This document shows positions 2,440-62,752 of a stretch of DNA of 64,000 nucleotides, piece after piece. The stretch lies in contig NZ_VIRL01000007.1 in assembly GCF_006874465.1 (NCBI RefSeq), forward strand, positions 186,001 through 250,000, written 5' to 3'. The notes under the pieces were generated by a model. The model was not told where the DNA came from, searched no databases, and worked only from the letters and a program-made list of their open reading frames with translations. Numbering within the stretch: position 1 is the stretch's first letter; each line of letters opens with the position of its first letter. The position numbers were made by a program, and so were the translations under genes. This DNA is from Microbispora bryophytorum (lineage in GTDB: Bacteria > Actinomycetota > Actinomycetes > Streptosporangiales > Streptosporangiaceae).

Positions 2440-2450
2440 GGCACCCGACC

Positions 2451-4511
2451 CTACTCGTGCGGCCGTACGGCGCCGTGGGTGAGGCCGTCGGCCACCAGCC
2501 TGGACAGGTCCTCACCGAGCGCCGCCGCCTCGCGCAGGGCCGACCGGAAACCGGCCAGGCGCCGGAACACCTCGCCGTATCTGCGTTGGTCCTCCATCGG
2601 CAGCACCGGCAACTCCGCACGCCGTACGTCCACCCGATAGCGCGAGGACATGGCGGTGTAGTGGCGGACGTTGGCGGACGCGCAGAGGAAACCCGCGAGG
2701 AAGTCGGGGTCGAGCACCTCGGGATCGGGCCGCAGCAGAGACAGGTAGGGGCCGAGCAGGGCGCCGCCCTTCGTCAGCACCTGCGCGACCGGGGCGGTCA
2801 CGACCTGCGGCACCACGACGTCGCCAGGCCGCGTGACGATCGGTCTCGCCCCGGCGTGCTCGGAGGATCCCGTCGCGTCCCGGTCGTCGAGCACGTCCTC
2901 GACGGTGAGGACGGGCATCCCCCGAGGAGCCTCCTCTCCCGGCCGGGCCGGCGTCTGCTGCTCCACGGCGAGCATGCCGCGCCGCACCAGCTCGGGCAGC
3001 GGGACCAGGGCGAGCTCATCCGCGGGCGCAGCCGCGACGGACGGCAGCAGCCCGGCGACGGTCTCCAACAGCTCGGCGAGCCGGGACCGGGCTCCGGCGA
3101 TCCGCTCCGGCGACAGGTCGTCGGCCCCCGTGGACAGGTAGCGGGCGGGGGTGAGGTCCACGTCCTCGTCGAGCAGATCGACGAGCGGGACCGACCTGCT
3201 GACGCCGGGCTCGTCCAGCTCGCGCCCCGCGCCGAACTCCCGCCACGCCCCGACGGCCACCGCGGCGTAGTCGTCCGGCCTGCCGGAGGTGTCGACCATC
3301 AGCACATGGCTCGGCGTGCCGCCCTCGGACGGCTGGCACAGGATCCACAACGTCAGGCCGACCGCCACGTTGGGCACCGCGCCCTGCGGAAGCGCGATGA
3401 CCGCGCGCAACGCACCGCGCCGCAGCAGCTGGGACCTGATCCGGCGGCCCGACCTGCGGCTGGCGACGGCCGGGGGCATGAGGAGCACGGCCACGCCTCC
3501 CGGCGCGAGGTGGGCGAGCGCGTGCTGCACCCAGGCCAGCTCGGGCTCCACGCGCGGCGGCAGGCCGTACTCCCACCGGGGGTCGGCCGTCAGCTCCGCG
3601 TAGCCCCAGTTCCGGTCGTTGAAGGGGGGGTTGCACACCACGGCGTCCGCCAGCTCGCCGGGGAAGGCGTCCGCGCGCAGGGAGTCTCCCGGCCTGATCC
3701 GCGCGTTGTCGCAGCGCAGCGCGAGCCGTACGGCGGTGAGCCGGGCGGCCACCGGATCGACGTCCTGGCCGAGCAGCCGGGCCCCGGGCGCGCGCTCAAG
3801 CGCGCGGCCGAGCATGCGCCCCGAGCCGCAGGCCGGGTCGAGCACGGAGCCGAACCCGTCGCCCACGAGGTCGAGCGTGAGCGTGACGATCTCGGCGGGA
3901 GTGGAGTAGACCCGCCGGGTGTGCACCTCGAAGTACCGCTCACGCAGGAACTCGAAGGTGTCGCGAACGCCGCGTTCGGCGGCCAGCCGGGCGATGGAGC
4001 GGACCAGCGGCACCCTGGTCACCGGCACGGACTCGGGAAACGCCTCCGCGCTGACGGTCTTCGCGCACGTCGCGCGCACCCGGGCCGGAAGTCCCCGCGC
4101 CACCTCCTCGTCGGTCCCGGCCGAGAGCCTGCGCCAGTCGTCCGCCTCATGCCGCACGTACACGAGGAAGGCCCCGAGGTCGGCGATCAGGTCGGCGAGG
4201 TCGTCGTCGTCGACGGTGGTGCGCAGGTCCTGCCAGAGCCACTCGTCCGGAGGGAGGTCCCTGCCCTCGGCGTGGCCGCGCAGCCACTCCCGGATCTCCG
4301 CGAGGGAGAACGCCGGGCTGGTGGACGTGCCTCCCACGGGCTCGGGAAAGTCGTCGTGCCTGCGCCGCCAGTTGCTGACCGCCGCACGTCCCACGCCGGC
4401 CAGGCGGGCGATGTCCGCCGCGGTGACGTGTACGTCTCGCCGCACGCCGCTCCGCCTTCCGCCAGTTCTCCGATCAGACCGGACCATATCCGATGCCCCG
4501 GACATGGGCAA
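2451..4511 (-). CDS. HTH / N6-adenine DNA methylase / TRD-like fusion (paralogue A)
   Basis: A 686-residue protein. Residues about 28-60 (VTAADIARLAGVGRAAVSNWRRR) form a helix-turn-helix. A HsdM-type adenine methylase domain follows, with SAM motif I VLDPACGSG at 223-231 and catalytic motif IV NPPF at 294-297. The last 150 residues resemble a target-recognition domain of type I HsdS or type IIG enzymes (RPGDVVVPQV...DPDFLAGFLCAS...ELPVLPMEDQRRYGEVFRRL). The architecture is therefore regulator-M-S in one chain. No nuclease or helicase domain is present and no hsdR lies nearby. The gene is divergent from a NYN-domain gene and followed by a MazG-like gene. A paralogue lies at 56222-58438. Orphan epigenetic methylase or defence component are both possible. 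ATGs at 4505 and 4487 are alternative starts. Confidence 0.85.
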   Translation of the reverse strand: MPMSGASDMVRSDRRTGGRRSGVRRDVHVTAADIARLAGVGRAAVSNWRRRHDDFPEPVGGTSTSPAFSLAEIREWLRGHAEGRDLPPDEWLWQDLRTTVDDDDLADLIADLGAFLVYVRHEADDWRRLSAGTDEEVARGLPARVRATCAKTVSAEAFPESVPVTRVPLVRSIARLAAERGVRDTFEFLRERYFEVHTRRVYSTPAEIVTLTLDLVGDGFGSVLDPACGSGRMLGRALERAPGARLLGQDVDPVAARLTAVRLALRCDNARIRPGDSLRADAFPGELADAVVCNPPFNDRNWGYAELTADPRWEYGLPPRVEPELAWVQHALAHLAPGGVAVLLMPPAVASRRSGRRIRSQLLRRGALRAVIALPQGAVPNVAVGLTLWILCQPSEGGTPSHVLMVDTSGRPDDYAAVAVGAWREFGAGRELDEPGVSRSVPLVDLLDEDVDLTPARYLSTGADDLSPERIAGARSRLAELLETVAGLLPSVAAAPADELALVPLPELVRRGMLAVEQQTPARPGEEAPRGMPVLTVEDVLDDRDATGSSEHAGARPIVTRPGDVVVPQVVTAPVAQVLTKGGALLGPYLSLLRPDPEVLDPDFLAGFLCASANVRHYTAMSSRYRVDVRRAELPVLPMEDQRRYGEVFRRLAGFRSALREAAALGEDLSRLVADGLTHGAVRPHE

Positions 4512-4528
4512 CGTCGCACCAAGGGCTG

Positions 4529-4555
4529 GTTGATTGTGTCAACACATGCTCTAAT
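4529..4555. promoter_or_regulatory. Promoter/operator between methylase A and the NYN gene
   Basis: GTTGA (4529-4533) and TCAAC (4539-4543) form an inverted repeat with a 5-base spacer. It overlaps a second one, TGTGT (4535-4539) with ACACA (4542-4546). On the plus strand an extended -10 element, TGC followed by TCTAAT (4547-4555), would drive the NYN gene. The repeats are good candidates for the binding site of the methylase's own N-terminal HTH, which is an inference. Confidence 0.4.
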
Positions 4556-4591
4556 GGACGCCATAAGTCATCGTGGAAGGGAGCAAGGATC

Positions 4592-6710: not shown

Positions 6711-6714
6711 CCAC

Positions 6715-50732: not shown

Positions 50733-52821
50733 GAGCGTCGGGCGGCCCCCGCTGGTTCGGGGCCGTACCCGGCCCCAGAGCCGCCTCACGCTCGTGTTCG
50801 TGGTGGTGACCGCGCTCATGCTGACCCTGCTCGGACGGCTGTGGTACCTGCAGATCGTCACCGGCCCGTCGTACGTCCGGGCGGCCACGGAGTCACGGGC
50901 GCGCTCGGTCGTCCTGCCGCCGGTGCGGGGGCAGATCCTCGACGTGCGCGGCCGGCCGCTGGTGGCCAACGAGACCAAACCGCAGGTGTCGGTGGACTAC
51001 ATGGCCCTGATCCACCAGCCCGACGGCGGGAAGGACGTGCTGACCCGGCTCGCCCGGGCCCTGGGACGGCCCTACCAGGAGATCGCCGACCGGGCCCGGC
51101 TGTGCGCCGGGGACATGCCCCGGCCGTGCTGGCCCGGCTCGCCGTACCAGCCGATCGTCGTCGCGGACGACGTGAGCGTGCGCACGGCGCTGTGGATCGC
51201 GGAGCGGCAGGACGAGTTCCCCGGCGTCAGCACCGCGTTACGGCCGGTCAGGACCTATCCGCTCGGCTCGGCCGCGGCGCACGTGCTCGGCTACCTGCAG
51301 CCGCCCTCCCCCGACGACCCCGCGGGCGGCCCGGAGCTGATCGGCCGCGACGGCCTCGAAGCGCAGTACGACCGCGAGCTGGCCGGGCGCACCGGGATCA
51401 GGGAGGTGGCGGTGGACAGCACGGGCAAGGTCACCGGACTGATCCGCGAGGAGGCCGCCGTGGCCGGGGACACGCTGGTGACCAGCATCGACGCCCGCAT
51501 CCAGGAGCTGGCCGAACGGGCGCTGGCCCGGGCCGTGACCGCCGCGCGCAAGCGGGGCGAGCCCGCCGACAGCGGCGCGGTGGTGGTGCTGGAGGCCAAG
51601 ACCGGGCGGGTGACGGCGATCGCCGACTATCCCTCCTACGACCCGGGCGTGTGGACCGGGGGCATCTCCCAGCACGACTACGAGGACCTGCCGCTGGTCA
51701 GCGCCGCCGTGCAGGGGCAGTGGCCGCCGGGCTCCACCTGGAAGGTGACCTCGACGGCCGCGGCCGCCAAGGCGGGCTACTCGCTGCGGGCCTCCTACGA
51801 CTGCCCGGGCGGCTACACGATCGGCGGCCGGGTGTTCCACAACTTCGAGAGCGCCGAACTGGGCCGGATGGACATGCACCGGGCCCTGGTGGTGTCCTGT
51901 GACACGATCTTCTACCGCTTCGCGGAGAAGATGTGGCAGCGCGACGGCGGGCTCAAGCCGGTCAAACACCCGAAGGACCCGATGCAGGCGATGGCCGGGG
52001 AGTTCGGGTTCGGCACGCCCACCGGCGTCGACCTGCCGCACGAGGCTCAGGGACGGGTGCCCGGCCGCGCCTGGAAGAAGGCCAACTGGGAGCGGACCAA
52101 GGCGGACTCCTGCCGCCGCGCCAAGACCGGCTATCCGGAGATGTCCGACCGCAAGCGGGCGGCCTACCTCAGGGCGCTCGCCGCCGATAACTGCGGCTCC
52201 GGCGGGGTCTGGTGGGCCGGCGACGCGGCCAACTTCTCGATCGGCCAGGGTGACGTGCTGGTGACGCCGCTCCAGCTCGCCCGGGGCTACGCCGCGCTCG
52301 CCAACGGCGGCACGGTCTTCAGCCCCAGGATCGGCAAGCGGGTCGTACGCCCCGACGGCGCCGTGGTCCGCGCGATCACCCCGCCCGTGGCGGGGAAGAT
52401 CGACGTCTCGCGCAAGACGCTGCGGTTCATCCGCGACTCGCTCGCCGACGTGCCGCGCACGGGCACGGCGGCGGGCGCGTTCGAGGGCTACCCGTTCGGG
52501 CGCCTGCCGGTCGCCGGGAAGACCGGCACCGCCGAGGCGTACGGCAGGCAGGACACCTCGTGGTTCGCCTCCTTCGGCCCGGTGAACAAGCCCAAGTATG
52601 TGGTGGTGGTCGTCGTCTCGCAGGGCGGCACGGGCGCGGCCACGGCGGCCCCCGCCGCCCGCGACATCTGGGAGGGCATCGCCGCCCTCACCCATGACGC
52701 GAAGAAGCACGACGAAAAGAAGCACGACAAGAAGAGCAAGAAGGATAAGAAGGACGGCGGGAGGACGCGATCCGCCTCCCTGCCTCCGGTCGCGTTCGCC
52801 GGGGCGGGTGGCGCGCGATGA
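50698..52821 (+). CDS. mrdA: Penicillin-binding protein 2 (elongation transpeptidase)
   Basis: A 707-residue class B PBP. A membrane anchor near residues 30-52 (LTLVFVVVTALMLTLLGRLWYLQIV) leads to the dimerisation/pedestal domain (RSVVLPPVRGQILDVRGRPLVAN) and the transpeptidase domain. The latter has S346-T-W-K349 in PPGSTWKVTSTAAAA, SCD in VVSCDTIFYRFAE and K608-T-G in VAGKTGTAEAYG. It cross-links peptidoglycan with RodA. The tail is unusually Lys-rich (HDAKKHDEKKHDKKSKKDKKDGG) and should lie outside the membrane. GTG 50698 and TTG 50725 are both possible starts; the latter has a stronger GGGGGAGG site. Confidence 0.94.
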   Translation: MTRTRGGGALRRSVGRPPLVRGRTRPQSRLTLVFVVVTALMLTLLGRLWYLQIVTGPSYVRAATESRARSVVLPPVRGQILDVRGRPLVANETKPQVSVDYMALIHQPDGGKDVLTRLARALGRPYQEIADRARLCAGDMPRPCWPGSPYQPIVVADDVSVRTALWIAERQDEFPGVSTALRPVRTYPLGSAAAHVLGYLQPPSPDDPAGGPELIGRDGLEAQYDRELAGRTGIREVAVDSTGKVTGLIREEAAVAGDTLVTSIDARIQELAERALARAVTAARKRGEPADSGAVVVLEAKTGRVTAIADYPSYDPGVWTGGISQHDYEDLPLVSAAVQGQWPPGSTWKVTSTAAAAKAGYSLRASYDCPGGYTIGGRVFHNFESAELGRMDMHRALVVSCDTIFYRFAEKMWQRDGGLKPVKHPKDPMQAMAGEFGFGTPTGVDLPHEAQGRVPGRAWKKANWERTKADSCRRAKTGYPEMSDRKRAAYLRALAADNCGSGGVWWAGDAANFSIGQGDVLVTPLQLARGYAALANGGTVFSPRIGKRVVRPDGAVVRAITPPVAGKIDVSRKTLRFIRDSLADVPRTGTAAGAFEGYPFGRLPVAGKTGTAEAYGRQDTSWFASFGPVNKPKYVVVVVVSQGGTGAATAAPAARDIWEGIAALTHDAKKHDEKKHDKKSKKDKKDGGRTRSASLPPVAFAGAGGAR

Positions 52822-52882
52822 CAGTCTCGGCACAGACAGGCAAGGCTCAGACAAGCGTGGCTCGACTCCTTGGAGGCGCGCG

Positions 52883-54049
52883 GTGACGGCGCTCGGCCCC
52901 CTGTCCGTACGGCTGCCGGCGAGCCGGACGACCAGGCGCAGGGCGTTGGCGCGCCTCGCCTTCTTCCCCGCCTGGGGGCTGGTGCTGCCCGCGGCCGCGT
53001 TGTCGGCGATCGGGCTGCTGCTCGTGTGGTCGGCCACCCGCGGCGAACCGGGCTCGACGCTGCCGCAGCGGCAGGCGCTCAGCGTGGCCATCGGCTTCGT
53101 GCTCATGTGGGCCGTCTCACGGATCGGCCTGCGGGTCCTGCGGGCCTACGTCCCGGTGCTCTACCTGCTCGGGCTGGCCGGGCTGGTCGCCGTGCTGACC
53201 CCGCTGGGCCGCACGATCAACGGCTCGCACGCCTGGATCGTGCTCGGCGACGGGCTGCAGTTCCAGCCGTCCGAGTTCGCCAAGGGGGCCACGATCCTCG
53301 CGGTCGCGACGGCGCTGGGCGAGCCGCGCGACGGCGAGCGCAGGCCGGGCGCCGGGGCCGTGCTGCTCGCCCTTGGCCTCGCCGCGTTGCCGGTGGGGCT
53401 GATCGCACTGCAGCCCGACTACGGCACCGCGCTCGTCTTCCTGGTGCTGACCATCGGAATGATCGTGGTGGCCGGCGCGCCCAAAAGGTGGTTCGCGGCG
53501 TTCGCCGCCGCCGGGGCCGCCGGGCTGCTCCTGGTGTGGCGGCTCGACCTCATCCGGCCCTACCAGCTCCAGCGCCTGATGGTGCTGGCCGACCCGGACG
53601 CCGACCCGATGGGCATGGGCTACAACGCCACCCAGGCCAGGATCGCGATCGGTTCCGGGGGCCTGCTCGGCAAGGGCCTGTTCCACGGCGAGCAGACGGC
53701 GGGCCACTTCGTGCCCGAGCAGCACACCGACTTCATCTTCACGGTCGCCGGCGAGGAGCTCGGCTTCCTGGGCGCCGCCTGCGTGATCCTGCTGATGCTC
53801 GCCCTGCTCTGGCGCGGCCTGTGGATCGCGGCCAAGAGCCCCTCGCCGTTCGGCAGGCCGGTGGCCGGTGGGGTGGTGTGCTGGCTGGCGTTCCAGACGT
53901 TCGTGAACGTGGGGATGACCATGGGCCTGCTGCCGGTCGCGGGGCTGCCGCTGCCGTTCGTGTCGTACGGCGGGTCGGCCACGATCTCCAGCCTGGCGGC
54001 CGTGGGGCTGCTGGCCGCCGTGAACCGGCGTACGCGCACGCCGGCATAG
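52883..54049 (+). CDS. rodA: RodA (SEDS peptidoglycan polymerase)
   Basis: A 388-residue SEDS-family glycosyltransferase with about ten helices. Conserved segments include GSHAWIVLGDGLQFQPSEFAKGATIL, LIALQPDYGTALVFLVLTIGM with the catalytic-site Asp of the family, GLLGKGLFHGEQTAGHFVPEQHTDFIFTVAGEELGFLGA and the C-terminal GLLPVAGLPLPFVSYGGSATISSLAAVGLL. RodA polymerises lipid II and works with the PBP encoded 61 bp upstream. GTG 52883 has GGAGG at seven bases. It is the last gene of the mre operon. Confidence 0.95.
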   Translation: MTALGPLSVRLPASRTTRRRALARLAFFPAWGLVLPAAALSAIGLLLVWSATRGEPGSTLPQRQALSVAIGFVLMWAVSRIGLRVLRAYVPVLYLLGLAGLVAVLTPLGRTINGSHAWIVLGDGLQFQPSEFAKGATILAVATALGEPRDGERRPGAGAVLLALGLAALPVGLIALQPDYGTALVFLVLTIGMIVVAGAPKRWFAAFAAAGAAGLLLVWRLDLIRPYQLQRLMVLADPDADPMGMGYNATQARIAIGSGGLLGKGLFHGEQTAGHFVPEQHTDFIFTVAGEELGFLGAACVILLMLALLWRGLWIAAKSPSPFGRPVAGGVVCWLAFQTFVNVGMTMGLLPVAGLPLPFVSYGGSATISSLAAVGLLAAVNRRTRTPA

Positions 54050-54064
54050 GGCAGTCTTGGAGGA

Positions 54065-55108
54065 ATGCGCAGCAAGCTCGGCGGACGGGTGGCCCAGGCG
54101 GCGGAGATCGCCCTGGCCACCCGCAAGTACGTGACCCCGATCGACGTCCTCACCGGCCTGCGGTGGCTGCACGACCGCCATGTGGAGACCTGGCGGCAGG
54201 GCCGCGCCGACAGCCTGGAACGGCTGGCCGCCGTGGACACCGGCCGGATGGCCGAGGCCCTGTCGCATCTGCGCGCGTGGGCCCTGTCGCGCGATCTGGT
54301 GGAGAGCGAGGCGGTTTACACGGCGGGCACCCGCGACCGGCGGCCGCTGCGCTTCACGGCGGCGGGCGAGGAGGACCTGGAGCGCGCGTTCCGCGTCCAC
54401 TGGCTGTCTCCGGAGCTGAGCGAGGCGCGGCGGCGGCAGATCACCGAACGGCACAGCAAGGCCCCCGACCTCGTGGCGGTCGCGCCACTGGATCCGTGGA
54501 CCTGCGCCGACTGCGGGGAGACCGGGCCGTATCTGATCATGGAGGACGACCGGCCACACTGCCTGACCTGCGCCGACATGGACCACCTGTGCTTCCTCCC
54601 GGCGGGAAACGCGGCGCTGAGCCGCCGCGCCAAGAAGGAGAGCGGCCTGTCCGCGGTGGTGGTCCGCTTCAACCGGCGGCGCAAGAGATACGAGCGGCTG
54701 GGCGTCCTGGTCGAGGAGGAGGCACTGACGCGGGCGGAGGAGCAGTGCCTGGCCGACGAGGAGGCGCGGCTGCGCCGCCGCGAACGCGACCGCGAGCGCC
54801 GCGCCGACGAGGACGCCGAGTTCCAGACGAGGATGGCCGCGCAGATCCGCCGTCTGTTTCCCCGTTGCCCGGCCGAGCGGGCCGAGGCCATCGCCGCGCA
54901 CGCCGCCGTACGCGGCAGCGGGCGGGTGGGCCGCACCGCCGCCGCCCGCGTGCTGGACGAGAACGCCATCACGCTCGCGGTGATCGCGAGTGTGCGTCAC
55001 CTGGACACCGACTATGACGAGCTGCTGATGGCCGGGACGCCGCGGATGACGGCCCGCGAGCGGATCCGCCCCCGGGTCGAGGAGGTCCTGACGGCCTGGC
55101 GCGCGTGA
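54065..55108 (+). CDS. DUF2293 domain protein with zinc-binding Cys motifs
   Basis: A 347-residue soluble protein. A Cys motif, WTCADCGETGPYLIMEDDRPHCLTCADMDHLCFL (about 140-174), should hold a metal. The middle is a charged helix (EEEALTRAEEQCLADEEARLRRRERDRERRADED). The C-terminus IRRLFPRCPAERAEAIAAHAAVRGSGRVGRTAAARVLDENAITLAVIASVRHLDTDYDELLM is a DUF2293 domain, whose function is unknown. It follows rodA by 15 bp on the same strand, so it may be part of the same transcript, but nothing ties it to wall synthesis. Confidence 0.85.
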   Translation: MRSKLGGRVAQAAEIALATRKYVTPIDVLTGLRWLHDRHVETWRQGRADSLERLAAVDTGRMAEALSHLRAWALSRDLVESEAVYTAGTRDRRPLRFTAAGEEDLERAFRVHWLSPELSEARRRQITERHSKAPDLVAVAPLDPWTCADCGETGPYLIMEDDRPHCLTCADMDHLCFLPAGNAALSRRAKKESGLSAVVVRFNRRRKRYERLGVLVEEEALTRAEEQCLADEEARLRRRERDRERRADEDAEFQTRMAAQIRRLFPRCPAERAEAIAAHAAVRGSGRVGRTAAARVLDENAITLAVIASVRHLDTDYDELLMAGTPRMTARERIRPRVEEVLTAWRA

Positions 55109-55211
55109 GCTCGTCGAGCGGACCCTTGGCCGGCCGTGCGGGGGACCTCTCAGGGGCTCCCTTCAGTGGCCCTTCAGGAACCCCTTTCGGCGGGCCCTTT
55201 CTGCGGGCTTC

Positions 55212-56114
55212 TCAGCAGACGCGGCCGACCATCTGGGCGTACATGCGCCCGGGGCTGGGGACCGACGCCGGGTTGAGGAAGCCGGGCAGCGGGGGCAGGT
55301 CGACCGCGAACGGCTGCAGCCGTTCGAACAGCGTGTGCGCGTCGGGCGGCCGGTTGTCCGGCTCCTTCTCCAGCAGTTCGGCGATGAGACGGTCCAGCTC
55401 GGCGGGGACGCCGGGAACCCGGGGCGGCCGTTCCTTCACCTGCTTGTCGAACACGGCGTACTCCGTGGGCCCGGTGAACAGCTGGTTGCCGGTCAGCATC
55501 TCGTGCAGCACGCAGCCGAGGGAGTACAGATCGCTCTTCGGCCCGGCGACACCCCGCTGAATCTGCTCGGGGGACATGTACGCCGGAGTGCCGAGGATCT
55601 GCCCGATCCGGGTGAACTGCGCCGCCAATCCTGCGACGTCCGCCTCGCGCAGCATGGCGAGCCCGAAGTCGAGCAGCTTCACGCTGCCGTCCGGGCAGAG
55701 CATGAGGTTGGTCGGCTTGAGGTCGCGATGGCAGATCGACAACTCGTGGGCGGCGGTCAGCACGGCGCACGCCTGGGCGGCGATCGCCGCGGCCCACGGC
55801 ACCGGCAGCGGGCCGTGCTCGCTCAGCAGATCGGCGACCGTCACACCGTCGATGAACTGCATGACCTGGAAGAGCCGCTGCTCGTAGGTGCCGAAGTCGT
55901 ACAGCACGGGCGCGCCCGGATGGTCGAGCTTCGCGAGGATCCGCGCCTCACGGATGAAGCGACGCTGCAACTCCTCGTCCGGGCCGTCGGGCAGCCGCAG
56001 GAACTTCACCGCCACCTTGCGGTCGAGCCGCCGATCGTGCCCGCCGTACACGGCGCCCATGCCGCCCTGCCCCAGAGGGAGGTCGTCCAGCTCATACCGG
56101 TCGCCGATGACCAT
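55212..56114 (-). CDS. Soluble Ser/Thr protein kinase
   Basis: A 300-residue Hanks-type kinase. The glycine loop is LGQGGMGAVYGG, then come K37 in KVAVKFL, catalytic D131 in CHRDLKPTNLML, D149 in LLDFGLAML and the activation segment TRIGQILGTPAYMSPEQIQRG. All catalytic motifs are intact. There is no transmembrane helix: the protein stops soon after the domain (LPPLPGFLNPASVPSPGRMYAQMVGRVC), so it is cytosolic. It follows the HTH-methylase fusion by 107 bp on the same strand. A PP2C phosphatase sits on the far side of the methylase. The trio suggests reversible phosphorylation of the methylase or its HTH domain (inference). Confidence 0.92.
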   Translation of the reverse strand: MVIGDRYELDDLPLGQGGMGAVYGGHDRRLDRKVAVKFLRLPDGPDEELQRRFIREARILAKLDHPGAPVLYDFGTYEQRLFQVMQFIDGVTVADLLSEHGPLPVPWAAAIAAQACAVLTAAHELSICHRDLKPTNLMLCPDGSVKLLDFGLAMLREADVAGLAAQFTRIGQILGTPAYMSPEQIQRGVAGPKSDLYSLGCVLHEMLTGNQLFTGPTEYAVFDKQVKERPPRVPGVPAELDRLIAELLEKEPDNRPPDAHTLFERLQPFAVDLPPLPGFLNPASVPSPGRMYAQMVGRVC

Positions 56115-56221
56115 GCGCCCTCCAGTCGGCCTATCGGGGAAAAGCTACCGGATCCGCCCGCGACGTCGGGCTCGGCGGCCGGATGGACAGGACTCTCTCA
56201 GCCAGGAAGCTCCCGGCCGCG

Positions 56222-58438
56222 TCATCCACGAGGGCGGAGGCGTCCGTCGATCAGCCCCTCGACGCCGAGCCGCGCGAGCGCCTCCCCCATGGCGGCCACC
56301 TCGCGCAGGCCGTCCTCCAGCGCGAGCAGCCGCCGGAAGGCCGCGCCGTACGCCCGCTGAACGGCCAGGGGAAGCTGGGGGACGCGGGCCCGGCGGGCCT
56401 CCACGCGGCTGCTGCCCAGATGCGGCCGGCCGCCGCCCGCCGCGTAGCGCAGGAAACCGGCCAGGAACTCGGGATCCACCTTGCCGGGATCGACGCGGAA
56501 AAGGCTGAGATGGGGGCCCAGGACCGCCCCCTCCCCCGCAACCACCCGGGCGGTGACGGCCGACGCCACGACGTCTCCCGGTCGCACGACGACCAGGCCG
56601 GGGGCACGCGGGATCCGCCGCGACGGCGCCGTCCCGGCCGCGACGTCGTCGGCCGTCAGCACGGGCACACCACCCTCGGCCACCTCGCCGTCAGGGGCGT
56701 CGGCGGGCACACCACCTTCGCGCACGCCGCCCTCGGGAACACCGCCCTCGAGAACACCGCCCTCGCGCGCACCACCCTCGGGCACGCCACCCTCGGGCAC
56801 CTCGCCGTCGGAGGCGTCGGCGGGTAGCGCCCGCAGCGTCGAGTGCCTGATGGTGACCAGCCCGGATCTGGCCATCTCGGCCACGGTCGCCCACGACGCG
56901 TCCCAGCCCGCCGCGCCGCCGGTGAGCACCTCCAGGTCGGGCACGTCGTCGGCCAGCGCCGCGATCGCGTACCGGAAGCGCTCCCTGTCCGCCGGAAAGC
57001 CCTGTGTGTCGACCCGGGGCGACAGGTGCCGCGCCGGGCTCACGTCCACCTCGTCGTCGAGGATGTCGATGATCCTGACCGTGCGGCCGCCAGGTGGCAG
57101 CTCGGCCTTCGCGAGGTGGGCCCGCCAGACCGCCTCGGCGGAGGCCGGGTCGTCCCCCGCGTCGGCCACCAGGATCGCGCCGGGCTGCCGCTCCCCGGGC
57201 TCGGGACGGCGCAGCAGCCACAGGTCGGGGCCTCCGGGCGCCAGCGTGAAGACCGCGCGCAACGCGCCCGTCCGCAGCAGGTTCGCCCGGACGCGGCGTC
57301 CCGGGCGGCGGCTCGCGGCGGCGCCCGGCATCAGGACGGCCACCAGCCCGCCGGGCCGCACGTGGGCCAGGCAGTGCTGCACCCAGGCCAGCTCCGGCTC
57401 ACCCCGCGGGGGCATGCCGTACTGCCAGCGGGGATCGCCGACGAGGTCCTCGTGGCCCCAGGCCCGCTCGTTGAACGGCGGGTCGCACACCACCGCGTCC
57501 ACGAGCGTGTCCACGAGCGCGTCCACGAGCCCGTCCCCCGGCGCGTTTCCCAGCGTGTCCGCCGGCCGGTCCGGAGAGAACGCGTCGTGCCGCAGCGCGT
57601 CCCCGGGGACGACCCGGGCGTCCCGCCCGCGCAGCAGCAGCCGCAGCGCCGCGAGCAGCGCGACCGTCTCGTTGGCGTCCTGGCCGAGCAGCCGCGCCTT
57701 GTCTCCCGCCCCACCGGCCCCGGCGGCGTCCAGCAGGAGCGTGCCCATGCCGCACGCCGGGTCGAGCACCGTACGCGCCCCCGGGCAGGCCAGCCGGGTC
57801 ATCAGGGCGGCCACGTCGGGCCGGGTCAGTGCCAGCCTGCGGCTGTGCGCCTCGGCGTACCGCTCGCAGAGGAATTCGAACGTGCCGGCCGCGCCGTTCC
57901 GCTCGGCCATCCCGGCGACCAGCCGGAGCAGGCCGGGCTCGACCGGCGTCGTGTCCCCCGCGCGCCGGGGCAGGTCGGCGGTCGCCTCGGCCACCGCGCC
58001 CGGGAGCCGTGCGGCGAATCCGGGGGTGGCGGACAGCCGCTTCCAGCCGACGGGATCGCGGAGCGTGTAGAGCAGGAACGCCCCGACCTCACCCAGCACC
58101 TCGCCCAGGCGCAGGTCGTCGGCCGAGGCGCGCAGCCGCTGCCAGACGCGGTCGCCCTGGGACACCTCGAACGACTTGCCGTTCCTGCGCAGCCACGCCT
58201 CCACTTCGGGGAGCGAGAAAAGCGGGCTGGAGGCGGTACCTCCGACCGGTTGGGGGAAGTCCTCGTACCGGCGGCGCCAGTTGCTGACCGCGGCCCTGCC
58301 GACATCGGCGAGCCGGGCGATGTCACCCGCGTTCACGGTCGCTTCGACCGCCGCTTCGACGGCCGCCTCGAGCGGGCTCGCGGCGGCCGGGCGCGCCGTC
58401 GCGTCCGTCGTGTCGTCCGCCTGGGCGTCGTGGCTCAT
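56222..58438 (-). CDS. HTH / N6-adenine DNA methylase / TRD-like fusion (paralogue B)
   Basis: A 738-residue paralogue of the 2451-4511 product. The helix-turn-helix NAGDIARLADVGRAAVSNWRRRYEDFPQPVGGT matches that of A almost residue for residue. The methylase domain has motif I VLDPACGMGTLL (224-235) and motif IV D319-P-P-F322, where A has NPPF; both forms are accepted in N6-adenine methylases. The C-terminal TRD-like domain (RPGDVVASAVTARVVAGEGAVLGPHLSLFRVDPGKVDPEFLAGFLRYA...VPQLPLAVQRAYGAAFRRLLALEDGLREVAAMGEALARLGVEGL) is close to A but differs where specificity would lie. A five-residue repeat tract fills the linker between the two domains. No nuclease domain is present. Neighbours are a kinase downstream and a divergent PP2C gene. 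Confidence 0.85.
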   Translation of the reverse strand: MSHDAQADDTTDATARPAAASPLEAAVEAAVEATVNAGDIARLADVGRAAVSNWRRRYEDFPQPVGGTASSPLFSLPEVEAWLRRNGKSFEVSQGDRVWQRLRASADDLRLGEVLGEVGAFLLYTLRDPVGWKRLSATPGFAARLPGAVAEATADLPRRAGDTTPVEPGLLRLVAGMAERNGAAGTFEFLCERYAEAHSRRLALTRPDVAALMTRLACPGARTVLDPACGMGTLLLDAAGAGGAGDKARLLGQDANETVALLAALRLLLRGRDARVVPGDALRHDAFSPDRPADTLGNAPGDGLVDALVDTLVDAVVCDPPFNERAWGHEDLVGDPRWQYGMPPRGEPELAWVQHCLAHVRPGGLVAVLMPGAAASRRPGRRVRANLLRTGALRAVFTLAPGGPDLWLLRRPEPGERQPGAILVADAGDDPASAEAVWRAHLAKAELPPGGRTVRIIDILDDEVDVSPARHLSPRVDTQGFPADRERFRYAIAALADDVPDLEVLTGGAAGWDASWATVAEMARSGLVTIRHSTLRALPADASDGEVPEGGVPEGGAREGGVLEGGVPEGGVREGGVPADAPDGEVAEGGVPVLTADDVAAGTAPSRRIPRAPGLVVVRPGDVVASAVTARVVAGEGAVLGPHLSLFRVDPGKVDPEFLAGFLRYAAGGGRPHLGSSRVEARRARVPQLPLAVQRAYGAAFRRLLALEDGLREVAAMGEALARLGVEGLIDGRLRPRG
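56668..56824 (-). repeat. Tandem 15-bp repeats in the linker of methylase B
   Basis: On the coding strand this encodes repeated E-G-G-V-P-like pentapeptides (six or more, with A/R/L variants). Two copies of ADA[P/S]DGEV, exactly 117 bp apart, flank the run. The tract is absent from paralogue A, whose linker at this point is short. It is in frame and looks like slippage expansion. Confidence 0.8.
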
Positions 58439-58459
58439 GGCACGAGCCTAGCACTGTGC

Positions 58460-58495
58460 TTGTGAAGTGACTCAACCAATGGTTTACTCAAAACC
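58460..58495 (+). promoter_or_regulatory. Promoter of the PP2C gene, probably leaderless, with an embedded dyad
   Basis: TTGTGA (58460-58465) and TTTACT (58483-58488) are separated by exactly 17 bases. Only seven bases lie between the -10 and the ATG at 58496, and no ribosome site exists, so transcription should begin at the start codon. GGTTT (58481-58485) and AAACC (58491-58495) form a 5-5-5 dyad, and ACTCAA occurs twice (58470, 58486). The region also serves methylase B on the other strand. Confidence 0.65.
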
Positions 58496-59230
58496 ATGAC
58501 GCACAACCGTATTCGGTACGCCGCTGGGTCGGATGTCGGGCGCTCGCGTGCCAACAACGAGGATTCGGTGCACGCCGGCGAGCGCCTGCTCGCCATCGCC
58601 GACGGGATGGGCGGACACGGACACGGCGAGGTCGCCAGTGCGGCCGTCATCTCCACACTGGCCAGGCTGGAGGACGGTCCGGCTCCGGCCGACCCCGCCG
58701 CCGTCCTCGCGGACGCCGTGCGGGAGGCGGGGCAGCACCTGGGTGACCTCGCCGCGCAGGACCCGGCGCTCGAACGGATGGGCACCACCGTCACCGCGAT
58801 GCTGTGGGACGGGCACGGAAAGTTCGCCCTGGCCCATGTCGGCGACTCTCGGGCGTACATGCTGCGTGACGGCGCGCTCTACCAGATCACGCGCGACCAC
58901 ACCCTGGTGCAGTCGCTGGTGGACGACGGGCGGATGAGCCCCGACCAGGCCGCCCGCCATCCACGCCGTTCCCTGCTGCTGCGGGCGCTGGAGACCAGCG
59001 GCCTGGCCGAGCCCGACCTGTCGCTACGCGAGGCGCTCCCGGGCGACCGCTACCTGCTGTGCTCCGACGGGCTCACCTCCGTCCTCGAACCCGAGGCGCT
59101 GCACCACGTGCTCACCACCGTCGCCGATCCGCAGGAGACGGTCCACCGGCTCATCGAGCTGGCCAACGAGGGCGGCGGGCCCGACAACATCTCGTGCGTG
59201 GTCGCCGACGTCGAAGCCGCCGACGCCTGA
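58496..59230 (+). CDS. PP2C family Ser/Thr phosphatase
   Basis: A 244-residue metal-dependent phosphatase. All PPM motifs are present: RSRANNEDSVHAG with metal-ligand Asp, LLAIADGMGGHGHGEVASA, MGTTVTAMLWDGHGKFALAHVGDSRAYML, DHTLVQSLVDDGRM, RYLLCSDGLTSVLE and GGGPDNISCVVADV. It has no transmembrane segment. It is divergent from the HTH-methylase gene, with 57 bp between starts, and a cytosolic Ser/Thr kinase lies beyond the methylase. It is the natural antagonist of that kinase by position. Start ATG 58496, apparently leaderless. Confidence 0.93.
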   Translation: MTHNRIRYAAGSDVGRSRANNEDSVHAGERLLAIADGMGGHGHGEVASAAVISTLARLEDGPAPADPAAVLADAVREAGQHLGDLAAQDPALERMGTTVTAMLWDGHGKFALAHVGDSRAYMLRDGALYQITRDHTLVQSLVDDGRMSPDQAARHPRRSLLLRALETSGLAEPDLSLREALPGDRYLLCSDGLTSVLEPEALHHVLTTVADPQETVHRLIELANEGGGPDNISCVVADVEAADA

Positions 59231-59315
59231 GACCTCACCTTCCCGGCCCGCGAAAGCGCTCTTGTTCGCCTCGAGATTCCGCAGAATATGCCGAGCGGTG
59301 CGCCCCGGGCGGACG

Positions 59316-60077
59316 TCAGACGGCCCAGCCGCCGTCGACGTTGATCGTCGCGCCGGTGACGTAGCGCCCGCCGTCGCCCGCCAGGTGGGCCACGGTCTCG
59401 GCGATGTCACCGGGCTGCGCGTAGCGGCCGAGGACCGTCAGTCCCCGGACGGTGTCGGCCATGGGGCTGTCTGCCGGGTTGGAGGCCGTGTCGGTCGGGC
59501 CGGGGTTGACGAGGTTGACCGTGATGCCGCGCGGCCCGAGGTCGCGGGCGAGCCCCTTGGTCATTCCGGTCATGGCCGTCTTGCTCATGGCGTACAGGGC
59601 GAAACCCGGGAAGACGGTCCGCTCGGCGACGTTGCTCCCGATCGTGATGATCCGGCCGCCCTCGGTCATGTGGCCCGCCGCCGCCCGCGCGGCCAGGAAC
59701 GGCCCGCGCACGTTGGCCGCGAGCGTACGGTCGACCTCGTCCGGCCCCAGATCCTCGATCGGCGCGACGTGGAAGACCGCCGCGTTGTTGACGAGGACGT
59801 CGAGCCGGCCGAACTCCGCGGCGGCCTCGTCCACGGCGGCGGCGACCGCCGGGGCGTCGCCGTTGTCGGCCCGGATGACCAGCGCCCGCCGGCCCATCGC
59901 CTTCACCTTCTCGGCCACGGCGGCCGCGCTGTCGTCGTCGCGCTCGTAGGTCAGCGCCACGTCCGCGCCGCGCTCGGCCAGCTTGAGGACGACCGCCGCG
60001 CCGATTCCCCGGCCACCCCCGGTGACCAGGGCCGCCTTGCCGTTCATGTCGTTGAGCTCGTTCATGGGGTCGAGCAT
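59316..60077 (-). CDS. Short-chain dehydrogenase/reductase
   Basis: A 253-residue classical SDR. The cofactor motif TGGGRGIG lies near residue 19, followed by NNAAVFH, the catalytic Ser in TIGSNVAE, Y-x-x-x-K in FALYAMSKTAMTGM and the C-terminal GRYVTGATINVDGGWAV. The acid/basic pattern after strand 2 (TYERDDDSAA) does not settle NADH versus NADPH. The family includes 3-oxoacyl-ACP reductase-like enzymes and many secondary-alcohol oxidoreductases; the substrate is unknown. Starts at ATG 60065 or 60047 are also possible. Confidence 0.88.
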   Translation of the reverse strand: MLDPMNELNDMNGKAALVTGGGRGIGAAVVLKLAERGADVALTYERDDDSAAAVAEKVKAMGRRALVIRADNGDAPAVAAAVDEAAAEFGRLDVLVNNAAVFHVAPIEDLGPDEVDRTLAANVRGPFLAARAAAGHMTEGGRIITIGSNVAERTVFPGFALYAMSKTAMTGMTKGLARDLGPRGITVNLVNPGPTDTASNPADSPMADTVRGLTVLGRYAQPGDIAETVAHLAGDGGRYVTGATINVDGGWAV

Positions 60078-60149
60078 GGCGACAACGGCGCCGGGAGGTC
60101 CGGCGGCGATCGGACCTGTCGTTCGGGCCCCGCGAGGCCCTGTGAGCGG

Positions 60150-60719
60150 TCAGGCGCCGCGCGCCCGGAATGCGGCCGTCTTGACCCGGTTCTGGCAGGC
60201 CGTGGAGCAGAAGCGGCGGGTGCCGTTGCGGGAGGTGTCCACGTACACGCGGTCGCAGTGCGGCGCGGTGCACACGCCGAGCCGGTCGTGCAGCTCGCCG
60301 CCGAGCACCACGGCGAGGCCGGTCGCGCAACTGGCCGCGTAGTTTCCGGCCAGGGTGCCGCCCGCGGCGTGGAAGTGCAGGTGCCAGGGCTCCCCGTCGT
60401 GCCGGTCGAGGTGCGGGCGCGCGTCGGTCTCCGCCAGCAGGCGGTTCACGGTGAGCGCCGCCGTGTCCACGTCGCCGCGCGTCACGGCCTCGAACACGCC
60501 GCGCAGCCGCCCGGCGACCTCGGCGAGCGCGTCCGCCTCCGCCTCGGTGACCGCGGGCGCCCGCCTGTCGCCGGCCGCGAGGACATCGGCGACCGCGGCG
60601 GCCCGCGCCTTTCCCGTGGGCGGCTCGTACGACCGGCCCCGTGCCTCACCTTCGGTCAGCGCGTTGACCAGGCCGACGGCGACCGCCACCACACCATCGG
60701 TGTGACTGTTGAAGTTCAC
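60150..60719 (-). CDS. CGNR zinc-finger (ABATE domain) transcriptional regulator
   Basis: A 189-residue protein. The N-terminal ABATE-type stress-sensing domain (NFNSHTDGVVAVAVGLVNALTEGEARGRSYEPP...) leads to a C-terminal zinc finger, LGVCTAPHCDRVYVDTSRNGTRRFCSTACQNRVKTAAFRAR. The family CGNR tetrapeptide is CQNR here, and the four metal Cys are kept. Members are putative DNA-binding regulators. GTG 60719 is preferred because codons further upstream run through the promoter. It is divergent from a methyltransferase gene with repeated CAGTTAC boxes in between. Confidence 0.85.
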   Translation of the reverse strand: MNFNSHTDGVVAVAVGLVNALTEGEARGRSYEPPTGKARAAAVADVLAAGDRRAPAVTEAEADALAEVAGRLRGVFEAVTRGDVDTAALTVNRLLAETDARPHLDRHDGEPWHLHFHAAGGTLAGNYAASCATGLAVVLGGELHDRLGVCTAPHCDRVYVDTSRNGTRRFCSTACQNRVKTAAFRARGA

Positions 60720-60723
60720 TTGA

Positions 60724-60780
60724 CCAGTTACACCTTTGCGCTCTACGTTTGTAACTGCCGAAAGCATACACGCCAGTTAC
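60724..60780. promoter_or_regulatory. Three CAGTTAC/GTAACTG boxes between CGNR regulator and methyltransferase
   Basis: CCAGTTAC at 60724-60731 and 60773-60780 and the opposite orientation GTAACTG at 60751-60757 give three related sites with a TTGTAACTG core. They overlap both start regions and are the obvious candidate operator of the CGNR protein. AAGGAG at 60781-60786 serves the methyltransferase. Confidence 0.5.
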
Positions 60781-60791
60781 AAGGAGACGGC

Positions 60792-61556
60792 ATGCTCACG
60801 TTCGACGTGGCCACCCGGTGGATCGACCGTTGGGACCGCCAGCAGGAGGGCTACCTTCCCGACCGGGAGGAGCGCTTCACCGCGCTGATCGACGCCGTCG
60901 AGGCCGGCGTGGGCCGCCCGGACCCCCTCGTGATCGACCTCGGCTGTGGCCCCGGCTCGCTGTCGGCCCGCCTGCTGGACCGCCTTCCCGGGGCCAGGAT
61001 CGTCGCGGTCGACGCCGATCCCCTGCTGCTGTCGCTCGCCCGGGCCGCGTACGGCGACCGCCACGGCCTGCGCCTCGCCGACCTGGACCTGCGCGAACCG
61101 GGATGGAGTCAGGCGCTCGGCCTCGACCGTCCGGCGGACGCGGCGGTGAGCACGACCGCGTTGCACTGGCTGGCCGAGCACGACCTGCGCGCCGTGTACG
61201 CCGAGCTCGCGGCCGTGCTGCGACCGGGCGGGCTGTTCCTCGACGGCGACCACTTCAGCTCCGAGGACACCACTCCTGAGCTGGCGCGCCTGGAGCGGGC
61301 CATTCACGAGAGCGAGGAGCGGCGGCGCTTCGCCGGCGGCCGTCCCGAGGACTGGCGCGAGTGGTGGGACGCGATCGCCGCCGACCCCGAGCTCGCCGGT
61401 GTCGCGGCTCCCCGGCCGGCCACCGCGGCTCACCACGGCTCGGAGTCGCTCCACCTGTCCACTCACGTCGAGGCCCTGCGCGCGGCGGGCTTCGCCGAGA
61501 TCGGGACGCTGTGGCAGCGCGGCGACAACCGCCTGCTCTGCGCCGTGCGTCCCTGA
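60792..61556 (+). CDS. Class I SAM-dependent methyltransferase
   Basis: A 254-residue methyltransferase. The SAM-binding motif LVIDLGCGPGSLSARLLDRLPGARIVAVDADPLLLSLAR starts near residue 48, motif IV is ADAAVSTTALHWLAEHDLRAVYAEL and the post-motif is AAVLRPGGLFLDGDHF. It resembles trans-aconitate and small-molecule methyltransferases. The neighbouring CGNR gene and the shared boxes suggest that it is regulated by that protein. The substrate is unknown. Confidence 0.88.
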   Translation: MLTFDVATRWIDRWDRQQEGYLPDREERFTALIDAVEAGVGRPDPLVIDLGCGPGSLSARLLDRLPGARIVAVDADPLLLSLARAAYGDRHGLRLADLDLREPGWSQALGLDRPADAAVSTTALHWLAEHDLRAVYAELAAVLRPGGLFLDGDHFSSEDTTPELARLERAIHESEERRRFAGGRPEDWREWWDAIAADPELAGVAAPRPATAAHHGSESLHLSTHVEALRAAGFAEIGTLWQRGDNRLLCAVRP

Positions 61557-61633
61557 CCTCCCCGGCCCGCCGGTCTCCCCGACCGCCCTGTCCGGCGGGG
61601 TTTGCCCGCCGCGTCGCCGGAAAGACGGACGCC

Positions 61634-62752
61634 ATGACACCGACCGTGCTCACCGTCAACGCCGGCTCCAGCAGCCTCCAGCTGCATCTGGTGCGGGACG
61701 GCCGCGTGCTGCGGGCCGAGCACAGCGAACACAGCCCGGACCCCGCCGAGGCGGAGCGTACGCTGACGGACTTCCTGTCCGAGGCCGGCGCCGACGTGAC
61801 CGCGGCCGGTCACCGGCTCGTCCACGGCGGCGAGGCCGTCCGCGCTCCGACGGTCGCCGACGACGACGTGGTGGAGGCCGTGCGCGGATACGCCGGCCTC
61901 GCGCCGTCGCACGTGCCGCCCGCGCTCGCGCTGGTCGAGGCGGCCCGGCGGGTGCTGCCGTCCGTGCCGCACGTGCTGTGTCCCGACACCGCCTTCCACG
62001 CCGGGCTGCCCGCCGCCGCCGCGACCTACGCCCTGCCCGCCGGATGGCGGCGCCGCTGGGGCCTGCGCCGCTACGGCTTCCACGGGCTGTCGTACGCCTG
62101 GGCGGCCCGCCGGGCGGCCGAGCTGCTCGGGCGCCCGGCCGGAGAGGTCAACCTGATCCTCACGCATCTCGGCGGCGGCTGCTCGGTCTGCGCCGTGCGC
62201 GACGGCCGCAGCGTGGACACCTCGATGGGGTTCACGCCGCTGGAGGGCGTGCCCATGAGCAGGCGTTCGGGCAGCGTCGATCCCGGCATGCTCCTGTGGC
62301 TGCTGTCCGGCTCGCGCCTCACGCTGGAGGAGCTGCGCGACGGGCTGGAGCACGGCTCCGGCCTGCTCGGGCTCTCCGACGGCCTGTCCGGCGACACCCG
62401 CGACCTGGTCGCCTCGTCCGAGGAGGCCGCCGCCTTGGCGCTCGATGTGTTCGCCTACCGGGTGAGCCGGGAGATCGCCGCCTCGACCGCCGCCCTCGAC
62501 CGGCTCGACGCGCTCGTGTTCACCGGCGAGATCGGCTGGGACCAGCCCGAGGTGCGCGAGGCCGTGTGCGGCAGGCTGTCCCTCCTCGGCGTCGAGCCGC
62601 CCGCCGTCGACGACGTGGACCGGGACGGCGTCGTCAGCCCGAGTGGCGCCCGCCTGCCGGTCCTCGTCGTACGGCCCCGAGAGGAGCTCCAGGTCGCCCG
62701 GGAGACCCTCGCCGCGCTCGGCCGTCCCGCCGGTGAAGGCGGGCGGCCGTAG
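61634..62752 (+). CDS. ackA: Acetate kinase
   Basis: A 372-residue acetate/propionate kinase of the ASKHA fold. It carries VLTVNAGSSSLQLHLV, GHRLVHGGEAVRAP, CPDTAFHAGLP, RRYGFHGLSYAW, LILTHLGGGCSVCAVRDGRSVDTSMGFTPLEGVPMSRRSGSVDPGMLLWLL and VFTGEIGWDQPEVRE. It forms acetyl phosphate from acetate and ATP. It is shorter than the usual 395-405 residues, and the region RSGSVDPG differs slightly from the common RSGDIDP. No phosphotransacetylase gene is adjacent, which is uncommon. It may work with an unlinked pta or a phosphoketolase. Confidence 0.9.
   Translation: MTPTVLTVNAGSSSLQLHLVRDGRVLRAEHSEHSPDPAEAERTLTDFLSEAGADVTAAGHRLVHGGEAVRAPTVADDDVVEAVRGYAGLAPSHVPPALALVEAARRVLPSVPHVLCPDTAFHAGLPAAAATYALPAGWRRRWGLRRYGFHGLSYAWAARRAAELLGRPAGEVNLILTHLGGGCSVCAVRDGRSVDTSMGFTPLEGVPMSRRSGSVDPGMLLWLLSGSRLTLEELRDGLEHGSGLLGLSDGLSGDTRDLVASSEEAAALALDVFAYRVSREIAASTAALDRLDALVFTGEIGWDQPEVREAVCGRLSLLGVEPPAVDDVDRDGVVSPSGARLPVLVVRPREELQVARETLAALGRPAGEGGRP

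What the first reader, a model, noticed from the sequence alone, without database searches (positions are those of the whole stretch)
55212..59230. Candidate phospho-regulated DNA modification module: kinase, HTH-methylase-TRD fusion, divergent PP2C
A cytosolic Ser/Thr kinase with all motifs intact follows an HTH/N6-adenine methylase/TRD-like fusion, and a PP2C phosphatase is divergent from it by 57 bp. The Pgl and BREX type 2 systems also combine a kinase (PglW) with an adenine methylase (PglX), but their PglY and PglZ partners are missing here. This may be a minimal kinase-methylase-phosphatase switch for epigenetic control or phage defence. The role is inferred from composition and layout only.
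Basis: partly seen in the sequence, partly recalled or inferred. Interest (0 to 1): 0.8.

Follow-up and report, generated by a model that had tools for sequence, protein, structure and literature searches.

The report
Kinase–phosphatase pair around a DNA methylase
Three neighbouring genes (a DNA-binding methylase, a protein kinase and a protein phosphatase) have stayed together in many soil actinobacteria and look like a phosphorylation switch descended from virus-defence operons but without their DNA-cutting parts.

Summary
In detail: kinase 55212-56114 (-), HTH/N6-methylase/TRD-like fusion 56222-58438 (-), divergent PP2C 58496-59230 (+), 57 bp apart. The three genes are a conserved module: 15 of 15 examined genomes of the window's genus and 41 of the 80 best named relatives, including Nonomuraea, Actinomadura, Kutzneria and Amycolatopsis. 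Methylases with PP2C form one clade. Their kinases are short (41 of 41, 294-308 aa from match start), and 0 of 45 loci shows any of eight tested restriction/DISARM-type genes in the flanks held. Methylases without PP2C mostly have longer kinases (29 of 30), and 27 of 35 lie near HsdR/YgjP, Drm or UvrD-like genes. The divergent promoter carries an imperfect palindrome, GTGAA-N5-TCAAC; such sites precede 54 of 80 family members against 2 of 2842 background stretches. The HTH is the most constrained part. Best reading: a domesticated, nuclease-free piece of a defence operon in which the HTH-methylase binds its own divergent promoter and kinase and phosphatase set its state. Binding, phosphorylation and methylation are inferred. 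It is not BREX/Pgl; phage defence has no direct support.

The parts
55212..56114 (-). Ser/Thr kinase, 300 aa, PknB-like catalytic domain
   Evidence: Pfam Pkinase 2.2e-46; catalytic residues invariant; model pLDDT 88.6
55218..55313 (-). Conserved C-terminal tail of the kinase (LPPLPGF...PSPGRMYAQMVGRV), helix at residues 288-296; possible docking peptide (inference)
   Evidence: Y292 invariant in 35 aligned kinases; tail mean identity to the window 79% in 19 PP2C-clade rows, 40% in 15 others; helix
56222..58438 (-). HTH / N6-adenine methylase / TRD-like fusion, 738 aa
   Evidence: Pfam N6_Mtase 4.5e-25; fold closest to type I HsdM, 3lkd Z 29.4, rmsd 3.4 over 351 residues
58184..58345 (-). N-terminal HTH (residues 32-85), the most constrained part
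   Evidence: mean identity 86% in 26 PP2C-clade rows, 79% in 21 others; dN 0-0.027 against dS 0.11-0.58 in four genus comparisons
57473..57484 (-). Catalytic motif IV, DPPF (residues 319-322)
   Evidence: D/N-PP-F in 40 of 43 PP2C-clade rows and in 25 of 36 other rows
56704..56800 (-). 15-bp tandem repeat coding a variable, disordered linker between methylase and TRD-like parts
   Evidence: TRF 6.5 copies; pLDDT under 50 at residues 542-587
56225..56677 (-). TRD-like C-terminal part with long helix (residues 588-738)
   Evidence: model strands then helix 691-730; residues 588-690 60% mean identity in the PP2C clade; no Pfam hit
58439..58495 (.). 57-bp divergent promoter region
   Evidence: conserved block across genera
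58458..58488 (+). Conserved 31-bp element GCTTGTGAAGTGACTCAACCAATGGTTTACT; by eye it spans a -35/-10 pair (TTGTGA-17-TTTACT) 7 bp before the PP2C ATG, suggesting a leaderless transcript
   Evidence: its pattern matches in 17 of 37 genomes, 18 sites, 0 control sites; the sigma-70 scan found no consensus promoter, so the promoter reading is by eye
58462..58476 (.). Operator-like core, imperfect palindrome GTGAA-N5-TCAAC
   Evidence: strict site set in 54 of 80 loci, 2 of 2842 background stretches; only two such sites in the 64-kb window, here and at 4529
58496..59230 (+). PstP-like PP2C phosphatase, 244 aa
   Evidence: Pfam PP2C_2 1e-12; PstP 2cm1 9.6e-70 and 1txo (there called putative bacterial enzyme) 5.8e-70
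2451..4511 (-). Second HTH-methylase of the same family in the window, no kinase or PP2C match beside it
   Evidence: 47-48% identity; neighbours; operator-like core at 4529-4543, a perfect palindrome

Best explanation
A three-gene regulatory module domesticated from an actinobacterial restriction-type defence operon. Shown by comparison: the HTH-methylase and its kinase belong to families that elsewhere sit in type I-like (HsdR-YgjP-methylase-kinase) and DISARM-like (DrmABC-methylase-kinase) operons; in one clade the kinase lacks the long C-terminal extension, no tested nuclease or helicase gene is nearby, a PstP-like phosphatase is present, and the set keeps a conserved operator-like element in the shared promoter. 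Inferred: the HTH-methylase, probably as a dimer, binds GTGAA-N5-TCAAC and controls its own gene and the phosphatase gene; the kinase phosphorylates it (or a partner) on an unknown signal, changing DNA binding and/or methylation; the phosphatase resets it. With the phosphatase under the methylase's operator the loop would be closed. Methylation at TRD-defined sites probably persists in this clade but may be secondary to DNA binding.
For: Linkage kept over long distances and after rearrangement: PP2C divergent in 40 and codirectional in 5 of 80 loci, kinase kept in 41 of those 45. One clade for PP2C-linked methylases: SH-aLRT 100 on 79 rows, still one change with the three left-out loci added, 82 rows. 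Their kinases (18 rows) are one clade nested among longer kinases in an outgroup-rooted tree, nesting supports 86-93. Short kinase 41 of 41 against 473-544 aa in 29 of 30. Tested effector-type genes 0 of 45 against 27 of 35. Operator-like element: 54 of 80 against 2 of 2842. None of the 13 methylases inside drm/hsdR operons has it within 330 bp upstream, and all 14 non-PP2C methylases that have it lie outside such operons, as expected if it belongs to a promoter of the methylase's own. Strongest purifying selection on HTH and kinase. 8 of 11 relatives with a broken motif IV still have a kinase. Precedent for a kinase that releases an autoregulatory repressor from a palindrome: CapK/CapS (PMC13373217, abstract, outline and passages).
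Against: No experiment shows phosphorylation, binding or methylation. 4 of 45 PP2C-linked loci have no kinase beside them (L106 and the Actinomadura loci L113, L119, L167), nor has L047, so the kinase is dispensable or elsewhere. Nesting of the kinases has only moderate support and long outgroup branches. Descent is not purely vertical: the record named Nocardia aurea (L103) falls among Nonomuraea, a transfer or a mislabelled record; no species tree was compared. The element could be an ordinary promoter or the site of another protein. Its 10-letter core occurs 21-27 times per genome against 1-4 for the reversed control; of 30 sampled sites 25 lie inside called ORFs, 22 of these in one reading frame, so coding sequence explains most, but 5 do not. 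Window motif IV is intact, so methylation may be the main function.
Confidence: 0.5

Rival explanations
1. A compact phage-defence system: the kinase senses infection, phosphorylates the methylase or host proteins and stops growth, as proposed for Pgl; the phosphatase is the safety catch.
For: Kinase matches PADLOC PD-T4-6 models (best 3e-94) and mad6 (1.3e-65); methylase matches MTase_I (1.2e-79), and mad2 and mad1 weakly; relatives lie in RM and DISARM-like operons.
Against: Same place in 15 of 15 genus genomes beside DUF2293/FtsW/PBP genes; none of eight tested defence-type genes in 45 of 45 loci; kinase more conserved than the neighbouring FtsW in the two most distant genus members (91 and 90% against 82 and 78%); no phage hit. 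25 of the 35 kinase hits shown are a broad set of kinase models, so the PADLOC name is weak evidence.
Confidence: 0.2
2. A solitary epigenetic methylase like CamA: it methylates a conserved motif genome-wide and affects development; kinase and PP2C modulate it or act elsewhere.
For: Motif I and IV intact in the window; D/N-PP-F in 40 of 43 clade rows; TRD-like part 60% identical in the clade, not much less than the methylase core at 67%; CamA structures at Z about 20.
Against: HTH and operator-like element are more conserved than the methylase core; relatives with a broken motif IV keep the kinase in 8 of 11 cases.
Confidence: 0.2
3. A modification-only remnant of a restriction system, kept as protection, with kinase and PP2C as neighbours of no joint function.
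For: Relatives with HsdR exist; fold is type I HsdM.
Against: Three genes kept together in many genera, strong purifying selection on the kinase, and still linked after rearrangement in two Actinomadura loci (L118, L127).
Confidence: 0.07

Closest known systems
Type I restriction-like operons HsdR - YgjP - HTH-methylase - kinase (e.g. L131)
   Same: Homologous HTH-methylase followed by homologous kinase
   Different: No HsdR or YgjP found here; kinase lacks the C-terminal extension; PP2C present
DISARM-like operons DrmA - DrmB - DrmC - HTH-methylase - kinase (e.g. L140, L168)
   Same: Homologous HTH-methylase followed by homologous kinase
   Different: No Drm genes found here; motif IV is degenerate in most of those methylases
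BREX type 2 / Pgl
   Same: Kinase plus adenine methylase; PglW is proposed to activate PglX, probably by phosphorylation (passage of PMC9739823)
   Different: PglZ model finds nothing in the window's genome; kinase and methylase are not of the PglW and PglX families
MADS
   Same: HTH, methylase and Ser/Thr kinase with weak to moderate similarity to MAD1, MAD2, MAD6
   Different: Kinase 135.6 bits on the NCBIfam MAD6 model against a cut-off of 460; the rest of MADS was not searched for. MADS itself is recalled; its paper was not seen
CapK/CapS (PMC13373217, passages)
   Same: Works alike in the proposed sense: a kinase controls a palindrome-binding, self-regulating HTH protein
   Different: CapK is a GHKL kinase and CapS a STAS-HTH repressor; no methylase or phosphatase in the pair in the passages read
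CamA orphan methylase
   Same: Similar methylase fold (Z about 20)
   Different: CamA's role in sporulation is recalled, not looked up; I know of no HTH, kinase or PP2C partner for it (recall)

Membership tests
BREX type 2 / Pgl | PglZ | tested here: not met
   PF08665 has no match in the window's genome; 5 of 8 searched genomes have weak matches (best 33.1 bits, cut-off 25), those of genus members G001 and G010 far from the module
BREX type 2 / Pgl | Kinase of the PglW family | tested here: not met
   48.7 bits, cut-off 990; 300 aa
BREX type 2 / Pgl | Methylase of the PglX family | tested here: not met
   no PglX model among the PADLOC or NCBIfam hits; PglX/BrxX structures appear only as distant folds
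BREX type 2 / Pgl | PglY/BrxC ATPase | not tested
   -
MADS | MAD6 kinase | tested here: not met
   135.6 bits, cut-off 460
MADS | Remaining MAD genes in the operon | tested here: inconclusive
   neighbours are PBP, FtsW, DUF2293 and SDR genes; no dedicated search for other MAD genes
Type I restriction-modification | HsdM-like methylase fold | tested here: met
   3lkd Z 29.4, rmsd 3.4, 351 aligned; 3khk Z 28.6. By sequence the NCBIfam hsdM model gives 22.9 bits against 242.75
Type I restriction-modification | HsdR beside it | tested here: not met
   none in 45 of 45 PP2C-clade loci with one query HsdR; 10 of the 45 have shortened flanks
DISARM | DrmA/DrmB/DrmC beside it | tested here: not met
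   none in 45 of 45 PP2C-clade loci, one query each
Ser/Thr kinase (Hanks type) | Catalytic residues intact | tested here: met
PP2C phosphatase, PstP-like | Similarity to the PstP catalytic domain over the full length | tested here: met
   2cm1, query residues 6-239
Active N6-adenine methylase | Motifs I and IV | tested here: met
   DPACGMG and DPPF in the window
Active N6-adenine methylase | Methylation activity | not testable with these tools
   -
Anti-phage system (PD-T4-6 or other) | Phage phenotype | not testable with these tools
   -

The most novel reading that the evidence does not exclude
A new kind of epigenetic phospho-switch: a kinase and a phosphatase jointly control a DNA methylase that is also its own transcription factor, and the promoter element GTGAA-N5-TCAAC, which has the shape of an interrupted methylase target with an adenine in each half, is both operator and methylation site, giving a heritable on/off state.
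Probability: 0.15. Interest if true: 0.85.

Novelty: new variant of a known kind. Interest (0 to 1): 0.6.

Why it matters
Kinase-methylase pairs are known from defence systems such as Pgl, but here one stands without effectors, has its own phosphatase and keeps a fixed place in many actinobacterial genomes. If it works as proposed, it links Ser/Thr phosphorylation to DNA methylation and transcription, and shows how part of a defence operon can become a cellular regulator. The conserved operator-like element and the fixed gene set make it testable in laboratory actinomycetes.

Tried and rejected
BREX/Pgl membership: rejected. Mobile element or phage origin: no phage hit; 3 plasmid records, best an 11.9-Mb replicon of Nonomuraea gerenzanensis that looks like a chromosome, the others Streptomyces replicons of 2.8 and 1.0 Mb; the first has no annotation in the region. 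RNA element in the locus: no Rfam match in window 50000-62000. Regulon search with the bare 10-letter core: 21-27 sites per genome in 6 genomes against 1-4 for the reversed control; of the 30 sites fetched, 25 lie in called ORFs, 22 of them in one frame, 5 outside, so no regulon is claimed, nor excluded. Promoter scan: no consensus sigma-70 site and no terminator. Pfam on the TRD-like part: nothing. Absence of a family from the fold list is not used as evidence.

Paper searches, all in the PMC library. Searches gave no paper; in the listings of the others (capped at 12 of 15, 12 of 112 and 12 of 26) I saw no description of this module. Passages read, no whole paper: PMC12839542, PMC7159879, PMC9739823, PMC10273834, PMC10853773, PMC13373217. 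This does not show that it is unpublished.

Rows dropped: L106, L145 and L167 were left out of the 79-row tree (L106 because its matched range holds a stop, which lies before the likely start codon; its ORF 6031-7992 is open). With all three added (82 rows) the PP2C label still needs one change. All three are in the 80-locus counts. In one search a kinase counted only at 42% identity or more; L163, counted as none, has a 38% kinase match 110 bp downstream. The 40 regions were picked by me from the hits, and the 14.

Full report
What is there. The window holds a 300-aa Ser/Thr kinase (55212-56114, -), a 738-aa HTH/N6-methylase/TRD-like fusion (56222-58438, -) and a 244-aa PP2C (58496-59230, +). 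The methylase and PP2C start codons are 57 bp apart. On the lower side lie PBP, FtsW and DUF2293 genes on the + strand, on the upper side an SDR gene on the - strand. Kinase motifs are intact and closest to PknB. The PP2C matches PstP (2cm1, 9.6e-70). The methylase model (mean pLDDT 85) is closest to type I HsdM (3lkd Z 29.4, rmsd 3.4; PacII M1M2S 7vru Z 28.3). Motif I (DPACGMG) and IV (DPPF) are present.

The neighbourhood is conserved. In the window's genus, 15 of 15 examined genomes (the window and L031-L044) have kinase, methylase and PP2C in the same order beside DUF2293 and FtsW (the PP2C of L040 is cut by a contig end). In four further genomes of the family (L045, L046, L049, L059) the three genes are there, in three of them without PBP/FtsW/DUF2293; L047 has methylase and PP2C but no adjacent kinase. 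Of the 80 best named relatives, 67 have a kinase of 42% identity or more within 400 bp downstream on the same strand, 3 within 1.7 kb, 1 upstream, 9 none (one of these, L163, has a 38% match there); 45 have a PP2C upstream, 40 divergent and 5 codirectional (all Actinomadura); all three genes occur in 41. In a class-wide sample 63 of 394 genomes have a methylase match at 1e-45; of 22 newly fetched loci with 1.5-kb flanks, 7 have PP2C and all 7 have the kinase.

One clade, two life styles. On a 79-row tree the PP2C-linked methylases (43 rows) are one side of a branch with SH-aLRT 100, one change against a shuffled mean of 26.3; with three left-out loci added (46 of 82 rows) it is still one change. 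One member named Nocardia aurea (L103) sits among Nonomuraea, a transfer or a mislabelled record. Counted from the start of the match, kinases of the PP2C loci are 294-308 aa in 41 of 41; the others are 473-544 aa in 29 of 30, the exception being L139 at 295. Of three long kinases tested, two have TPR hits above Pfam's cut-off and one below. I searched the loci with eight proteins taken from relatives (DrmA, DrmB, DrmC, HsdR, YgjP, a UvrD-like helicase, HsdM, a DUF262 protein): 0 of 45 PP2C loci match any, while of 35 others 5 have HsdR plus YgjP, 8 have Drm genes and 14 only the UvrD-like helicase. Flanks are up to 6 kb; 10 of the 45 are shorter on one or both sides. PADLOC names the query genes DrmA, DrmB, DrmC and type I REase, Pfam names YgjP. 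Kinases of the same type without this methylase beside them also lie near HsdR-, DrmB- or DUF262-like genes by my reading of translations. In a kinase tree rooted on other actinobacterial kinases the 18 sampled PP2C-module kinases form one clade (100) nested among the rest (supports 86-93; long outgroup branches). This suggests, without proving, that the module derives from defence operons.

The promoter. The 31-bp block GCTTGTGAAGTGACTCAACCAATGGTTTACT changes by only a few letters across genera whose methylases are about 53-60% identical. Its pattern matches in 17 of 37 genomes, 18 sites, with 0 control hits; by coordinates 17 sites lie before this methylase and one before a paralogue in G011. 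A strict palindrome set (GTGAA or GTTGA, N5, TTCAC or TCAAC) occurs within 330 bp upstream of 54 of 80 methylases and in 2 of 2842 random 330-bp stretches of the same loci: 40 of 45 PP2C loci and 14 of 35 others. The five PP2C exceptions are L137, L150, L155, L160 (near variants by eye) and L167. None of the 13 methylases inside drm or hsdR operons has it; a wider search over those whole loci found only one distant site, in L134. In the 64-kb window it occurs twice, at 58462 and 4529, each directly before one of the two HTH-methylases. Thirteen Actinomadura loci have two copies 67-68 bp apart. The loose 10-letter core alone is more frequent than its reversed control, mostly inside ORFs. By eye the block also spans a -35/-10 pair for a leaderless PP2C transcript; the consensus scan found no promoter.

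Where selection acts. In four comparisons within the genus the HTH has dN 0-0.027 at dS 0.11-0.58; dN/dS is about 0.07-0.11 for the kinase, 0.13-0.22 for PP2C, 0.28-0.37 for the methylase core and 0.14-0.41 for the TRD part. In the clade mean identities to the window are HTH 86%, methylase core 67%, TRD 60%, kinase 83%, kinase tail 79%. Motif IV is D/N-PP-F in 40 of 43 clade rows (the others EPPF, HPPF and DPPV) and in 25 of 36 other rows; 8 of the 11 others with a broken motif still have a kinase. So DNA binding and the kinase are better kept than catalysis.

Mechanism. The data fit a phospho-controlled, self-regulating HTH-methylase. Supported by comparison: linkage, common origin of the PP2C set, absence of tested effectors, conserved element, constraint. 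Inferred: that the HTH binds the element; that kinase and phosphatase act on the methylase; that this changes transcription or methylation; the signal is unknown. CapK/CapS gives a precedent for kinase-controlled release of a self-regulating repressor (PMC13373217, abstract, outline and passages), with different protein families. An orphan epigenetic methylase and a compact defence system remain open.

Known or new. It is not BREX/Pgl, its kinase misses the MAD6 cut-off, and it lacks the tested effectors of type I RM and DISARM. It is a new variant of the known kinase-methylase theme. My paper searches showed no description of the three-gene module, in a library that lacks most subscription papers and with capped listings.

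Noticed in passing
window 2083-5071: Second HTH-methylase (2451-4511, -) with a MazG-like gene downstream (2083-2439, Pfam MazG-like 1.4e-6) and a divergent gene (4493-5071, +) with a very weak NYN hit; a like divergent gene is beside the orthologues in L061, L063 and L064.
   Followed up: partly
L122, L124, L125, L131, L134: HsdR and YgjP-like metallopeptidase genes with the HTH-methylase and the long kinase; TPR found in L131, the one tested. A protease and a kinase inside a type I-like restriction operon looks unusual.
   Followed up: partly
L133, L140, L152, L159, L161, L166, L168: DISARM-like DrmA, DrmB, DrmC genes with an HTH-methylase and a kinase; motif IV is intact (NPPF) only in L140 of these seven, so the methylase may be inactive in the others.
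   Followed up: partly
L135, L136, L138, L141-L144, L146, L149, L154, L156, L157, L162: These 13 Actinomadura methylases carry two operator-like cores 67-68 bp apart upstream.
   Followed up: no
L229-L232, L234: In these class members the operator-like core lies about 75-160 bp before the methylase match, and a gene of about 190-225 aa with hydrophobic stretches follows the methylase (called in L231, L232, L234); in L229-L231 and L234 the start of a kinase follows 660-880 bp after the methylase.
   Followed up: no
L046, L049, L096: A second PP2C relative lies 1.3-2.1 kb or less from the module's PP2C.
   Followed up: no
window 56704-56800 and 57494-57536: Two short tandem repeats inside the methylase gene; the first codes the disordered linker, the second lies just before motif IV in a stretch partly of low confidence.
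   Followed up: no
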